Positions 9,323 to 13,987 of a DNA stretch of 62,668 nt are shown here, piece by piece. The DNA is taken from assembly GCA_003140235.1 (NCBI GenBank), contig PLJN01000059.1, positions 10,115 to 72,782 on the forward strand, written 5' to 3'. Position numbers and translations under genes: made by a program. A model generated the notes under the pieces. The model did not search any database. It had not been told where the DNA came from and saw nothing but the letters and a program-made list of their open reading frames with translations. Each line of letters opens with the position of its first letter. Within the stretch, counting starts at the first letter, position 1. Source of the stretch: Acidobacteriaceae bacterium (lineage in GTDB: Bacteria; Acidobacteriota; Terriglobia; Terriglobales; Acidobacteriaceae).

Positions 9323-9614
9323 GCTGCGCAGTCTAACAAGAAAGCGTCCGCGAAAATAGCCACGGTCCTCAGGTGCCGAAGCGCGTGCACTCTGGTGCAC
9401 ACCGGCTTGGCAGACCGTTGAGATTCGAACGCGGGCCTTATTTACTCTTGAAATACTATACAAATTACGTTAACATGTCGTGCAAAGCCCACCTGCATCG
9501 CTTTGCGCCATCTAATTTCCGGCACTCGGGTCTATTTTGCTTTTGAAAGGTGTTGCCAGTGGCGTTGGGAGGAAAAACCATCTTGTAACTGCCGTAGAAT
9601 GATATCCTTGCGAA

Positions 9615-9639
9615 GGCAATAAATCACTTGACTCGCCCA
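9615..9639. repeat. Left terminal inverted repeat of the IS1595 element
   Basis: It begins GGCAATAAATCACTTGACTC. Read inward, it matches the reverse complement of 12553-12577 at 21 of 25 positions. It lies 24 bp before the transposase start. Confidence 0.8.
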
Positions 9640-9662
9640 CGCCTTTAAGGTACATTCGGAGC

Positions 9663-10634
9663 GTGGAGAACAAGACAATGAGCGAGCCAAGAAGCCTTCA
9701 GCAAGCGATTCTTTACTTCTCTAACCCAGACAATTGCACTCAATACATTGCGGTGCGCCGCTGGCCTGATGGCGTAACCTGCCCCGGCTGCGGGTCGGAT
9801 CATGTGAGCTATAACGCCACTCGCCGCACATGGAAGTGCTCCACTCACCATCCTAAGCGAGAGTTTTCGGTCAAGGTCGGCACCATTTTCGAGGATTCCC
9901 CTATCCCGCTCGACAAGTGGCTCGCAGCGACTTGGATGGTCACCAACTGCAAAAACGGAATCAGTTCTTACGAAGTGGGGCGCGGTCTGAAAGTCACTCA
10001 GCGGACCGCATGGTTCATGCTTCACCGTATCCGGCTTGCGTTGCAGGGCAACCCGATGATGAAACTTGGTGGACCGGGGAGCGAAGTTGAAGTAGACGAA
10101 ACCTTCATCGGCGGCAAGGCCCGCAACATGCACGCCAGCAGTGCACGGCGTCGGCGCTTGGATGCCACTGGCGTTAAAGGAAAGACTCCAGTAGTCGGAA
10201 TCCTTGAGCGTGACGGCGAAGTTCGCGCCGGAGTTATTCCTACTCGCCGTCGAGGAGTGCTCTAGGGCGAGATTGGCAAACATGTAGCGGCAGGCACCGC
10301 TGTCTATACTGACAATTTTATGTCGTACGTCGGACTGTCCTCTGACTACGATCACAAGGTTATCGACCACGCGGAACGGTATGTTGATGGCAAAGTGCAC
10401 ACCAACGGCCTTGAGAACTTCTGGTCGCTGTTGAAGCGCGGCATTTCTGGAACGTATGTGAGTGTTGAGCCGTTTCATCTTTACCGTTACCTTGACGAAC
10501 AAATGTTTCGTTACAACAACCGCAAAAACCTTGACGATGCTGACCGTTTCAACTTGGCGATTTCACAGATCGTAGGCAAGCGCCTTACATTCGCCGAACT
10601 CACCGGGAAGACCGGAGGAGAAAAGGTCAATTAA
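9663..10634 (+). pseudogene. IS1595/ISXO2-family transposase interrupted by an amber codon
   Basis: The N-terminal zinc ribbon (CPGCGSDHV...WKCSTHH) and the helix-turn-helix region (FEDSPIPLDKWLAATWMV...SSYEVGRGLKVTQRTAWFML) lead into the DDE/N catalytic domain. This has EVDETFIGGK (first Asp), YTDNF (second Asp) and HTNGLENFWSLLKR (third acidic/Asn position). The frame is interrupted at 10263-10265 by TAG, in context CTC-TAG-GGC; the two halves (9663-10265 and 10320-10634) are in the same frame. Relatives usually have Gln here, so one C-to-T transition explains the stop. Restored length is 323 residues. The start is GTG at 9663 or ATG at 9678. It is probably inactive unless the amber is suppressed. 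Confidence 0.88.
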
Positions 10635-10654
10635 TCCGATGCGCGGCAAGCGTG

Positions 10655-10680
10655 GGCCTAAGGCAAAGCTTGCTTAGGCC
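10655..10680. terminator. Hairpin between convergent transposase and passenger genes
   Basis: The arms GGCCTAAG(G)CAA and TTGCTTAGGCC enclose a three-base loop, giving an 11-bp stem with a single bulge. It lies 20 bp after the transposase stop and covers the last codons and stop of the small minus-strand gene. That is where a bidirectional terminator would be expected. There is no long T-tract. Confidence 0.45.
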
Positions 10681-10864
10681 TTCGCTTCGGCTTTGGTCCT
10701 GGCCGATTCGGATTATTCAAAGACCGCTTCCGGTAAGCTTGCTCTCGTCGTACAAGCGTCGAGTGTGGCACCGCAAGAATCTGTTTCATGATGTCGTCGA
10801 ATTTACGAAATGCTTCGGAGCCTTCGACGCATTCTGGCAGTGGATGCTCACGCTTTCCCTTCAT
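10658..10864 (-). CDS. 68-residue basic protein coupled to the AIPR gene
   Basis: The domain is not one I can name. Features seen are PLPECVEGSEAFRKFDDIMK, ILAVPHSTLVRREQAYRK and a Lys/Arg/Pro tail (NPNRPGPKPKRRPKQALP). The ATG at 10864 overlaps the AIPR stop codon (ATGA), which implies translational coupling; an open frame runs 11 codons further upstream inside the AIPR gene. The product is small, charged and soluble. A regulator, antitoxin-like or nucleic-acid-binding role is possible but unproven. It may be cargo paired with AIPR or a small accessory of the IS1595 element itself. Confidence 0.68.
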   Translation of the reverse strand: MKGKREHPLPECVEGSEAFRKFDDIMKQILAVPHSTLVRREQAYRKRSLNNPNRPGPKPKRRPKQALP

Positions 10865-12516
10865 GACGCTCCCATCTTTTTGGCAAGGTCTTTGCATTTC
10901 GTGAGATTCTTAAACAAGTTACTCGGATACGAACTGTCGTAATGTTTTTTCTGAGCATATATCAAGGTGCTCAGGATTTTTTCGACAGCCGCAGGGAGGA
11001 CTTTGTTTACGGCTTCAAACTTACTATCCGCCGGAACGGACATGGTTTGGAAGAACATGTAAAGGACAAAGCGGTTACCGTGAGTGGCGATCAGTTTGGC
11101 CTTTCCTTCATTATTGGCCTGAAATATTTTTAATTCCGCTTCGACTGCTCGCAAAATTTCAATGTCTCGCCACATACGGACGGCTTGTGTGCCAACGTTG
11201 AACAGGATCGTATAGGGAGCCTTCGTGATGTCGTCCCACAATTTGCCAACCTCACGCTTGGCCTGAACGCAGTGGCTAATGTCGGAATGGGCGCAGGCGA
11301 GCGCAACAGCCGCCTCCTCAAACGTGCAGCCTTCATCTGGCGTTGGTGGCATATCCCCGCTGCGATAGACGTACCGTTTGTGGTGCTCCAAAAACAGGTC
11401 AGTCTGCAACCGAGCTTGCTGTGGATCCTGTGCCACAAAGTCTTTGCTCTCGATTCGGTTTTGCGTGTTAGCGGCCTTGGTGAGTTCCATGCCGAACCCT
11501 TCTGGGCAGCCGTCAAGCGAAATAACGCGCACCAAGACGCCAGCGTTCTGCAAGCCGTTAGCGCCTCCACTGACGGCGGCGACAATGCTCCCAACCGTTT
11601 GAGCGCCATTTACAACACTCGCACCGTCGCACTCGAAGACTCTGCTCGCTTGGGTGCCGCTGCCAAGCGGTTGCGGCGTAACCTTATCGGCAACCACAGT
11701 AATTCCGTTGTTGAAATACCAGAAATTTTGGGGATGGCTTTTGATTGTGGTCATGATGCCGTCATTAACATCCGTGTTTCCCTTGAAGCCACGAATATTC
11801 TTGGCGTACAGAAATTGGCCATATTTTCCCCAAGTCGCAATGTCCTTGAGATCAACCTGGCCGTAGTAGGCCATGTATGGCTCACGAACAGTACCCCATT
11901 CCTTCAGCATGATTTGGAGATTTACCGTTTCGCCAAGGGCTTGCTCGGCCACGATTCGATGCAGATCCTCTTGCTTCAATATTCTCAGTCCGACAAGTTC
12001 GGTCGGATCGTTGAGCGCCGCTACCAGTTCGTCCAATGGGTGCTGTGCATCACCAGATAAAGTCTGCTGCCCGGTGTACGCAACGATGAGTTTAAATGTG
12101 ACCTTGGAATCAGCAAGGACTTCTTCTATTAGTGGACGAAGCGCCTTCGTCTTTGGGCCAAATCGCTCAAGGTCTCCCTGGAAAAAGTCATGCACACCGC
12201 TTGTGAATTTTAAAATGGATCCCACGTCAACACTTCCGTTGCCGCTTTTGATCCATTTCGATTGCACTAAATAGCAGACCAATTCAAGCCGATCAAAATA
12301 CAAAGCGTCGATGCCGTTGTCTCGGGGACAATCTAAAACCGATGAGGCTGCAATATTATCTTCAGCTCCAGACAGCTCGGCTATCACAAACGCGGAAAGA
12401 CCGCGAGTCAGGAAACAATCCTCTTTTTCAGACTCTCTCACATCGGATACGTCTATTAATGAACCAAAACGCTTTTCGATGGCGGCCTGTACGTGGCCCA
12501 CATGCAGTATGCTCAT
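10861..12516 (-). CDS. AIPR (abortive infection phage resistance) family protein
   Basis: The 551-residue product carries the AIPR core: NFWYFNNGITVVADKV and, further on, ASVVNGAQTVGSIV, followed by AANTQNRIESKDF. The N-terminal 90 residues hold a PD-(D/E)xK-like nuclease motif, DNGIDALYF then VCYLVQSKW (Asp70 ... Gln85-x-Lys87), as in many predicted Mrr-like nucleases. Known AIPR members include AbiR-type phage-resistance proteins. The gene lies inside IS1595-family inverted repeats with its promoter side at the right terminus (start 36 bp from the repeat). It is more A+T-rich than the neighbours. A DNA-targeting abortive-infection role is inferred. Confidence 0.86.
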   Translation of the reverse strand: MSILHVGHVQAAIEKRFGSLIDVSDVRESEKEDCFLTRGLSAFVIAELSGAEDNIAASSVLDCPRDNGIDALYFDRLELVCYLVQSKWIKSGNGSVDVGSILKFTSGVHDFFQGDLERFGPKTKALRPLIEEVLADSKVTFKLIVAYTGQQTLSGDAQHPLDELVAALNDPTELVGLRILKQEDLHRIVAEQALGETVNLQIMLKEWGTVREPYMAYYGQVDLKDIATWGKYGQFLYAKNIRGFKGNTDVNDGIMTTIKSHPQNFWYFNNGITVVADKVTPQPLGSGTQASRVFECDGASVVNGAQTVGSIVAAVSGGANGLQNAGVLVRVISLDGCPEGFGMELTKAANTQNRIESKDFVAQDPQQARLQTDLFLEHHKRYVYRSGDMPPTPDEGCTFEEAAVALACAHSDISHCVQAKREVGKLWDDITKAPYTILFNVGTQAVRMWRDIEILRAVEAELKIFQANNEGKAKLIATHGNRFVLYMFFQTMSVPADSKFEAVNKVLPAAVEKILSTLIYAQKKHYDSSYPSNLFKNLTKCKDLAKKMGAS

Positions 12517-12552
12517 TGCTTCTCAGGATCCTCAATATTATGGTAACACCTA

Positions 12553-12577
12553 TGGGTGAGCCAAGTAAATTATTGCC
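12553..12577. repeat. Right terminal inverted repeat of the IS1595 element
   Basis: The reverse complement begins GGCAATAATTTACTTGGCTC and mirrors 9615-9639 at 21 of 25 positions. The outermost base (12577) touches the stop codon of the DUF2252 gene. Confidence 0.8.
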
Positions 12578-13987
12578 CTAAATAGGGTCTGGAAGGTCTT
12601 GAGTGTCTTTCTCGGAAGTATCTTTTTTGGAAGTATCTTTTTTGGATGCCGCAGGCGCGGAAGCTATTCCCGAGTGCTTCAGTCGCCCCTGCCTCAGGGC
12701 CTTGCCAAACGTGGCGTAGTCCTTCTCCACCTGGTCGGCGTAGGACACCGCAAACCGCAGAAGCGCCTTCTGCGCTTTGTCGGAGCCGCCCACGTATGCG
12801 GAAATTGCCACCGGATGTCCGGAACGCGCATGGCCCTTGGCCAGTAGTTCGGCACAGACGCGGCTGTATTCGGCGAGACGTCTACCCAAAAGTTCTTCGG
12901 GCTCAACCGAGCTTTTGTGGTCACTGAGCTGGCGCACCAAATAGTCGCGTCTATCAATCGTGCACCACCCCAGCAGAAGATCAGACGACACTTGCAACGC
13001 CCGTTGCCCCTCTACCACGCGCTGCCCCTGGTGCATGGCAGGGCCGGTATCTTTCAAATAGGGCGCGTACGCCGAAGGCGGCTCTTCCTTAATCTGCAGG
13101 AACAGTGGGTCCGCGTCGCTCCGTCCGAACAGCAGCACAACGTAATCCCGTGTGCCCACACTGCCTGTGCCCACCACTTTGAATCCAACATCCACGGCAT
13201 GATAGCGATCAAAAAGCTGCTGGTAGTGCGGAGCCAGGGTGCCACGATACGCAGGCAGCGCGCGCAGCACGGCTTTCCTGGTTTTGCCTTCGACCTCCCA
13301 TGTAGTGTTGGGGTGGAAGATAAAACGATAATCCTTGCCCTTTTTACGCGTGAGCTTCGCCATGTTGGAGAGCGGAGTGGACCGCTCAGCCTTTTTCAAG
13401 GCATCGCGGATAAACGGGTCGCGGAAGTTCCGCACCGTGCTGTGGCGCGCCACGTCAATCGTGGGCATTGCGGCAAAACGCCGCAGCCACTCGCAGTACT
13501 GCCTGATAAAGACGTCGGTCGCAGCCTTGCAGCGCGCTTCTTTATCGCCTGCCACCCTTCCTCCCAGCATAATGCTCGTAGCCATGCGCTTTACGTCCCA
13601 TTCCCACGGCCCGCGAATAGTCTCGTCGAAGTCGTTGATGTCGAGCACGATTTCCGAACTGGGCGTGGCGTAAAAACCAAAATTCTTAAGATGAGCATCG
13701 CCGCAAAGCTGGACACCAATGCGCGTGTTCCGGGCCGCGCCAAAATCGGCGGCCATGATCTCCACCGAGCCGCGAAAGAATGCGAACGGAGAAGTACTCA
13801 TCAGCCGGAACTTAAGCGGCAGCAGACGGGGAACGCGTCCGACACAGGATTGCCGGAAAACGTCTATAGGATCAAAATGGCGCGGCTTCAATTCTCCCAG
13901 CGCCGCACGGCCTAAATGCGCTCGTTGCGCCAGGCCGTACTCTTCGGAATCGGGACGCTTTGGCATCGGTAACTCCTTGGTGGGCAA
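12578..13987 (-). CDS. DUF2252 family (kinase-like fold) protein
   Basis: The 469-residue protein matches the DUF2252 pattern: FFRGSVEIMAADFG, then GDAHLKNFGFYATP (residues 96-109) and VLDINDFDETIRGPWEWDVKR (residues 115-134). The HGDxHxxN-like GDAHLKN plus the later DINDFD resemble the catalytic and metal-binding loops of aminoglycoside-phosphotransferase-like kinases, suggesting phosphotransfer. The substrate is unknown. The C-terminus has KKDTS-KKDTS-EKDT tandem units encoded by 15-bp repeats. The stop codon abuts the right end of the IS1595 element, so the native 3' end may have been altered by the insertion. Confidence 0.85.
   Translation of the reverse strand: MPTKELPMPKRPDSEEYGLAQRAHLGRAALGELKPRHFDPIDVFRQSCVGRVPRLLPLKFRLMSTSPFAFFRGSVEIMAADFGAARNTRIGVQLCGDAHLKNFGFYATPSSEIVLDINDFDETIRGPWEWDVKRMATSIMLGGRVAGDKEARCKAATDVFIRQYCEWLRRFAAMPTIDVARHSTVRNFRDPFIRDALKKAERSTPLSNMAKLTRKKGKDYRFIFHPNTTWEVEGKTRKAVLRALPAYRGTLAPHYQQLFDRYHAVDVGFKVVGTGSVGTRDYVVLLFGRSDADPLFLQIKEEPPSAYAPYLKDTGPAMHQGQRVVEGQRALQVSSDLLLGWCTIDRRDYLVRQLSDHKSSVEPEELLGRRLAEYSRVCAELLAKGHARSGHPVAISAYVGGSDKAQKALLRFAVSYADQVEKDYATFGKALRQGRLKHSGIASAPAASKKDTSKKDTSEKDTQDLPDPI
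12614..12643. repeat. Two tandem 15-bp units in the DUF2252 3' end
   Basis: Two identical copies of GGAAGTATCTTTTTT encode KKDTS repeats in the C-terminal tail of the DUF2252 protein. Unit gain or loss would stay in frame and alter only tail length. Confidence 0.75.

What the first reader, a model, noticed from the sequence alone, without database searches (positions are those of the whole stretch)
9615..12577. IS1595-family transposon carrying an AIPR anti-phage-like gene and a coupled small protein
Reading both strands shows matched 25-bp terminal repeats (21/25) around one interrupted IS1595 transposase and a convergent two-gene passenger operon: AIPR (N-terminal PD-(D/E)xK-like motif) and a 68-residue basic protein overlapping by ATGA. 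AIPR proteins are known phage-resistance candidates and IS1595 elements are known to host passengers, but I do not recognise this cargo pair. It suggests a mobile vehicle that disseminates an abortive-infection module.
Basis: partly seen in the sequence, partly recalled or inferred. Interest (0 to 1): 0.85.

Follow-up and report, generated by a model that had tools for sequence, protein, structure and literature searches.

The report
Transposon carrying swappable single-gene cargo
The stretch is a worn copy of a small jumping gene of the IS1595 type that carries a probable anti-virus gene, and it belongs to a large group of such elements that keep the same jumping machinery and the same tiny companion protein while exchanging the gene they carry.

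Summary
Window 9615-12577 has 25-bp terminal inverted repeats (21/25), an IS1595 transposase broken by one stop, an AIPR gene and an overlapping 68-aa gene. Two corrections. (1) The window copy has no target-site duplication of its own (CTTGCGAA / CTAAATAG). Its right flank matches the left flank of a sister element at the end of another contig, so it is a composite, by recombination or assembly. (2) The 68-aa protein is not an AIPR partner. A two-helix basic protein of this type sits in 51 of 58 delimited sister elements, whatever the cargo, with 0 hits in 543 kb of flanks. It belongs to the vehicle. Transposases close to this one occur in 45 of 120 genomes of the same family. Fifty-six of 91 loci are complete elements with 8-bp duplications, median 2.4 kb, all with cargo: DUF3800, AIPR/AbiU, CAP12-TIR, an Argonaute-like protein, type IIG restriction enzyme, RelA/SpoT, PIN, and many unknowns. 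Two elements with 95% identical transposases share 1.18 kb and the last 25 bp, with unrelated cargo between. AIPR recurs in IS1595 elements at least three more times. New variant of a known kind (IS1595 "transporter IS"). Phage defence by this AIPR is untested.

The parts
9607..9614 (.). left 8-bp flank CTTGCGAA (no match at the right end)
9615..9639 (+). left terminal inverted repeat GGCAATAAATCACTTGACTCGCCCA
   Evidence: same repeat type ends 58 sister elements
9678..10634 (+). IS1595-family transposase (zinc ribbon + DDE domain), interrupted by one in-frame TAG at 10263-10265; alternative GTG start at 9663
10655..10680 (.). 8-bp perfect stem (GGCCTAAG / CTTAGGCC) between transposase stop and small gene; possible terminator
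   Evidence: read directly from the sequence
10658..10864 (-). 68-aa basic two-helix protein; vehicle-encoded accessory gene (alternative start at 10897, 79 aa)
   Evidence: E 9.2e-9; E 1.4e-15
10861..12516 (-). cargo: AIPR-family protein, 551 aa (PADLOC AbiU); GIDA...QSK motif of PD-(D/E)xK type at residues 68-87
12553..12577 (-). right terminal inverted repeat (reverse complement GGCAATAATTTACTTGGCTCACCCA)
12578..12585 (.). right 8-bp flank CTAAATAG; identical to the left flank of the sister element at the end of contig C37; holds the stop of the DUF2252 gene
12578..13987 (-). DUF2252 gene, intact, ending at the element's edge (target, not part of the element)

Best explanation
Window 9615-12577 is a decayed, composite copy of a group of compact IS1595-family cargo transposons. 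The constant half of such an element is the left repeat, the transposase, a short spacer and a small two-helix basic protein. The variable half is usually one cargo gene, lying between the start of the small gene and a 25-bp right repeat. The transposase binds the repeats, moves everything between them and leaves an 8-bp duplication. Here the cargo is an AIPR protein with a predicted PD-(D/E)xK nuclease domain, most likely an anti-phage effector. Shown by sequence: the element group, ends, duplications, empty sites of sister elements, constant small protein and cargo replacement. Inferred: transposition by this transposase, the small protein as a transposition or cargo-expression accessory, and nuclease and defence activity of AIPR. 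The window copy itself is probably immobile unless an intact sister transposase acts on its ends.
For: Own genome: 16 transposase matches, sister elements with the same repeats and perfect 8-bp duplications. Census: 45/120 genomes; 56/91 loci with repeats and duplication, 54 perfect, sizes 1665-5899 bp, median 2394. Empty sites: two elements of one genome sit in copies of an intergenic repeat, and at least six uninterrupted copies span the junction. Small protein: 51/58 elements (36/43 excluding model seeds), 0 hits in 543 kb of flanks; found without reference to the transposase, 24/30 loci lie beside one; third-codon-position excess 0.55 against 0.35 and 0.30. Cargo replacement: L098/L099 share 1180 bp and the last 25 bp with unrelated cargo between. 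AIPR in other IS1595 elements. Cargo families.
Against: The window copy lacks its own duplication and its transposase has a stop. No empty site for this very insertion was found in relatives; neither the DUF2252 neighbourhood nor the proposed DUF2252-methyltransferase order is conserved. Defence enrichment of cargo over flanking genes is only suggestive (at least 9/67 against at most 3/67 with PADLOC E <= 1e-10, p = 0.06); most cargo is of unknown function. The AIPR model matched no solved structure, so the nuclease reading rests on motif and secondary-structure order.
Confidence: 0.8

Rival explanations
1. The AIPR gene and the 68-aa gene form a dedicated two-gene defence module (effector plus regulator or antitoxin) that an IS1595 element happens to carry.
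For: The genes overlap by ATGA and a small gene follows AIPR in three loci (window, L050, L049).
Against: The same small-protein family sits in 51/58 elements with unrelated cargos, and in several it lies on the strand opposite the cargo, beside the transposase. It is absent from the 8 AIPR loci without IS1595.
Confidence: 0.07
2. The window structure is an assembly chimera: the left end and part of the transposase come from one IS1595 insertion, and the AIPR half from another whose left end lies at the end of contig C37.
For: The flanks do not match. The right flank CTAAATAG equals the left flank of the C37 element. C37 ends inside its transposase at a 17-base stretch shared with the window. 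Joining C37 to the window's right side puts a methyltransferase start 3 bases after the DUF2252 stop.
Against: The two transposases are only about 76% identical in DNA and share just 17 bases at the contig end. Real recombination between sister elements gives the same picture. AIPR is inside an IS1595 element either way. Identical flanks arise at about 1e-4 per pair by position-specific composition, but several element ends were compared.
Confidence: 0.4
3. The elements are ordinary insertion sequences that happen to lie near defence genes (a defence-island effect), and the cargo is not moved by the transposase.
For: Some loci (33 of 91) have no repeat pair recognised.
Against: Repeats with 8-bp duplications enclose the cargo in 56 loci; paralogous empty sites lack transposase and cargo together; no cargo-free element of this group was among the 58 delimited.
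Confidence: 0.03

Closest known systems
IS1595-family 'transporter IS' (tIS; Siguier, Gagnevin and Chandler 2009, cited in PMC3129680)
   Same: IS1595 transposase with zinc ribbon, GG-starting inverted repeats, 8-bp duplications, passenger genes unrelated to transposition
   Different: A conserved small basic protein as part of the vehicle; nearly every copy has a different single-gene cargo, with several defence families. The 2009 paper is not held here, so its list of passengers was not checked.
AIPR / AbiU / MzaE abortive-infection proteins
   Same: PF10592 core, PADLOC AbiU match over residues 79-527, MzaE match over the core; GIDA...QSK motif
   Different: Solo cargo on a transposon rather than part of a restriction or MZA operon; NCBIfam MzaE score 47 against a cut-off of 1050
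Tn7-like transposons with defence cargo (PMC8649781)
   Same: Transposon that carries diverse defence genes as cargo
   Different: Different transposase; these elements are 1.7-5.9 kb with mostly one cargo gene
IS1016-type IS1595 elements such as ISApl4 (PMC12561309)
   Same: IS1595 family, 8-bp A/T-rich duplications
   Different: 712-bp cargo-free element; resistance genes move by two flanking copies, not inside one element

Membership tests
IS1595 family | DDE_Tnp_IS1595 domain | tested here: met
   PF12762 over cut-off in both pieces
IS1595 family | N-terminal zinc ribbon (all groups except IS1016; PMC8101967) | tested here: met
   PF12760 1.4e-8
IS1595 family | terminal inverted repeats starting GG | tested here: met
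   21/25 match
IS1595 family | 8-bp target duplication | tested here: not met
   window flanks differ; met in 56 sister elements, so this copy is composite, while the group fits the family
IS1595 family | intact transposase | tested here: not met
   in-frame TAG between the first and second catalytic motifs; open in most sisters
IS1595 family | assignment to one of the seven ISfinder groups | not tested
   ISfinder not available
transporter IS (tIS) | passenger gene inside the repeats of a single IS | tested here: met
   AIPR between IRL and IRR
AIPR (PF10592) | profile match over curated cut-off | tested here: met
   121 bits against 25
AbiU | PADLOC AbiU profile match | tested here: met
   4.2e-28, residues 79-527
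AbiU | phage resistance phenotype | not testable with these tools
   needs a bench test
MZA system (MzaE) | NCBIfam equivalog cut-off and mza neighbours | tested here: not met
   47 bits against 1050; no further system gene in the element
PD-(D/E)xK nuclease | conserved catalytic residues | tested here: met
   D66, D70, Q85, K87 invariant in 9 homologues
PD-(D/E)xK nuclease | fold match | tested here: inconclusive
   alpha/beta order fits, but no PDB match at E <= 0.001

The most novel reading that the evidence does not exclude
These elements are a dedicated single-gene exchange platform: a constant transposase, small protein and 25-bp right end into which unrelated, often defence-related genes are repeatedly swapped, with the small protein being a new kind of transposon accessory factor needed for capture, transposition or safe expression of the cargo.
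Probability: 0.35. Interest if true: 0.8.

Novelty: new variant of a known kind. Interest (0 to 1): 0.6.

Why it matters
It points to a common, overlooked carrier of single genes, several of them defence genes, in one bacterial group. Because cargo boundaries are sharp (small-gene start to 25-bp right repeat), the elements can be used to find new defence genes: most cargos have no known family. The constant small protein gives a concrete, testable unknown, and cargo replacement between near-identical vehicles makes the question of how simple insertion sequences acquire passengers approachable.

Tried and rejected
One search used a DNA string not taken from the window (my slip) and is void except for listing relatives. 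Empty site for the window insertion: DUF2252 neighbourhoods of four congeners share nothing with either flank; the methyltransferase next to the C37 element is not beside DUF2252 elsewhere. Empty site for the L050 element: only the lpxB side aligns in congeners. Known structured RNAs near DUF3800 cargos or in the window: none. PDB sequence and fold searches for AIPR and the small protein: no match. The small protein in plasmids: none. Considered and rejected: AIPR taken recently from a known plasmid or phage; best hits are 33% or less identical. Single capture of AIPR: the tree puts the window copy with AIPRs outside IS1595 and L050/L049 apart, suggesting two captures, though the branch is only moderately supported.

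Full report
What was checked. The two 25-bp ends at 9615-9639 and 12553-12577 match 21 of 25 when one is reverse-complemented. Between them lie an IS1595 transposase with zinc ribbon and DDE domain, broken by one TAG at 10263-10265, and on the other strand an AIPR gene (10861-12516) followed by a 68-aa gene (10658-10864) that overlaps it by ATGA.

The window copy is composite. IS1595 elements make 8-bp duplications (PMC8101967, PMC12561309). Here the flanks are CTTGCGAA and CTAAATAG. The second is identical to the left flank of a sister element at the end of contig C37 of the same genome, whose transposase is about 76% identical in DNA. Joining the C37 side to the window's right side gives a plausible gene order: the DUF2252 stop lies inside the duplication and a methyltransferase start follows after 3 bases. 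That order was not found in relatives, so it is a hypothesis. C37 ends inside its transposase at a 17-base stretch shared with the window, so either recombination between sisters or an assembly join is possible. AIPR is beside the right end in both cases.

The element group. The genome holds 16 matches to the transposase. Sister elements have ends of the same type (GGYAATAATATACTTGAC...) and perfect duplications, for example L037 GGAAGATC, L038 AAATTTTC, L039 CAAAAGAG, L041 CTCGGAAG. In the same bacterial family 45 of 120 genomes have close transposases; a sample of the phylum gave 19 of 297, including genomes outside the class. Of 91 loci analysed, 58 gave a repeat pair and 56 of these a duplication with at most one mismatch, 54 perfect. 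The 58 elements taken further (window included; three with imperfect duplications) run from 1665 to 5899 bp, median 2394, so all exceed the roughly 1.05 kb that ends plus transposase need. The duplications show a palindromic preference, roughly C T W N N W A G. In genome G008 two elements lie at the same position of an intergenic repeat, and at least six uninterrupted copies of that repeat span the junction: these are empty sites at base resolution for sister elements.

The small protein belongs to the vehicle. A profile of 15 small proteins finds a homologue in 51 of 58 elements (36 of 43 not used as seeds) and none in 543 kb of flanking DNA. Searched across 150 genomes without regard to the transposase, it occurs in 56; 24 of the 30 fetched loci have an IS1595 transposase within 1.5 kb, one more is the AIPR element L050, and several of the rest are cut by contig ends. 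Third codon positions differ more than first and second (0.55 against 0.35 and 0.30), as in a translated gene under selection. It usually sits tail to tail with the transposase and stays there when the cargo is on the other strand (L145, L168, L174); in elements such as L050, L146 and L154 it follows the cargo at the far end. The model is a two-helix hairpin (residues 17-50, pLDDT about 90) with a basic tail. No Pfam or PDB relative was found. Its function is unknown; an accessory role in transposition or cargo expression is my inference.

Cargo is exchanged. Elements L098 and L099, from two genera, have 95% identical transposases, share 84% DNA identity over the first 1180 bp and 100% over the last 25 bp, and carry unrelated genes between. 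The break lies at the start of the small gene on one side and the right repeat on the other. Of 76 pairs with transposases at least 65% identical only 2 share detectable cargo, no more than distant pairs (46 of 1342). Cargos include DUF3800 (11 of 67 proteins), AIPR/AbiU, RelA/SpoT, CAP12-type TIR, an Argonaute-like protein, a type IIG restriction-modification enzyme, an M78 (IrrE-like) peptidase, PIN, SocA/Panacea and Schlafen-AlbA domains, and many unknowns. Flanking control genes look like ordinary cellular genes with fewer PADLOC hits. The difference at E <= 1e-10, at least 9 against at most 3 of 67, is suggestive only (p = 0.06).

AIPR as cargo. AIPR lies in IS1595 elements at least three more times: G004:C35 (L050, about 42% identical, perfect duplication CTGAAAGG), G032:C486 (L049, 42%, beside a broken transposase, with the small protein, ends not recognised) and a C-terminal remnant in G160:C93 (L103, duplication with two mismatches). 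Eight further AIPR loci show no IS1595 transposase and no small protein in the stretch held; two sit in a helicase-AIPR-methylase operon and one beside a methylase, in line with the statement that AIPR is common in restriction operons (PMC2292703). The tree places the window AIPR with two non-IS1595 AIPRs and L050/L049 together elsewhere, which suggests at least two captures; support for the window branch is moderate.

How AIPR may work. Residues D66, D70, Q85 and K87 (GIDA...QSK) are invariant in nine homologues and fall on the strands expected for a PD-(D/E)xK nuclease. The full model matches no solved structure. A nuclease that acts on infection is the best reading, unproven.

Novelty. IS1595 elements with passenger genes are known as transporter IS (PMC3129680, citing Siguier 2009), and transposons with defence cargo are known (PMC8649781). 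I found no paper in the held library that describes defence cargo, the constant small protein or cargo replacement in IS1595 elements; the 2009 paper itself is not held. I call it a new variant of a known kind.

Noticed in passing
L120/L123 (G008), L149/L159 (G014), L153/L156 (G110): Pairs of cargo elements in one genome are inserted at the same position of near-identical intergenic sequence, so an intergenic repeat family is a recurrent target.
   Followed up: partly
L067:14684-15398 (G000:C37 end): Sister IS1595 element cut by the contig end; left flank CTAAATAG equals the window element's right flank; contains a run of N inside its transposase.
   Followed up: partly
L040:7471-10953 (G000:C34): Another element without matching duplication; its right flank read in reverse resembles the left flank, suggesting an inversion or palindromic target. 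Its transposase also has a TAG.
   Followed up: no
L121:1671-7569 (G161:C84): Largest element (5.9 kb) carries a 945-aa protein, most likely the MmeI-type restriction-modification enzyme of the cargo scan, and a second cargo gene.
   Followed up: no
L036:6632-8663 (G000:C51): CAP12/TIR-domain gene followed by a small basic protein, convergent with an intact IS1595 transposase, in the same genome; no repeat pair was recognised.
   Followed up: partly
L188, L189: Helicase, AIPR and DNA methylase genes in a row in two families of the same class; resembles a restriction or MZA-like defence operon.
   Followed up: no
window 12602-12646: Three 15-bp direct repeats in the 3' end of the DUF2252 gene, encoding a charged tail (SKKDT).
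   Followed up: no
elements L098, L099 (sequences, about element positions 1020-1075): Strong stem-loop between transposase and small gene (GCGGGC...GCCCGC followed by T-rich DNA), probably a terminator between convergent genes; conserved between the two.
   Followed up: no
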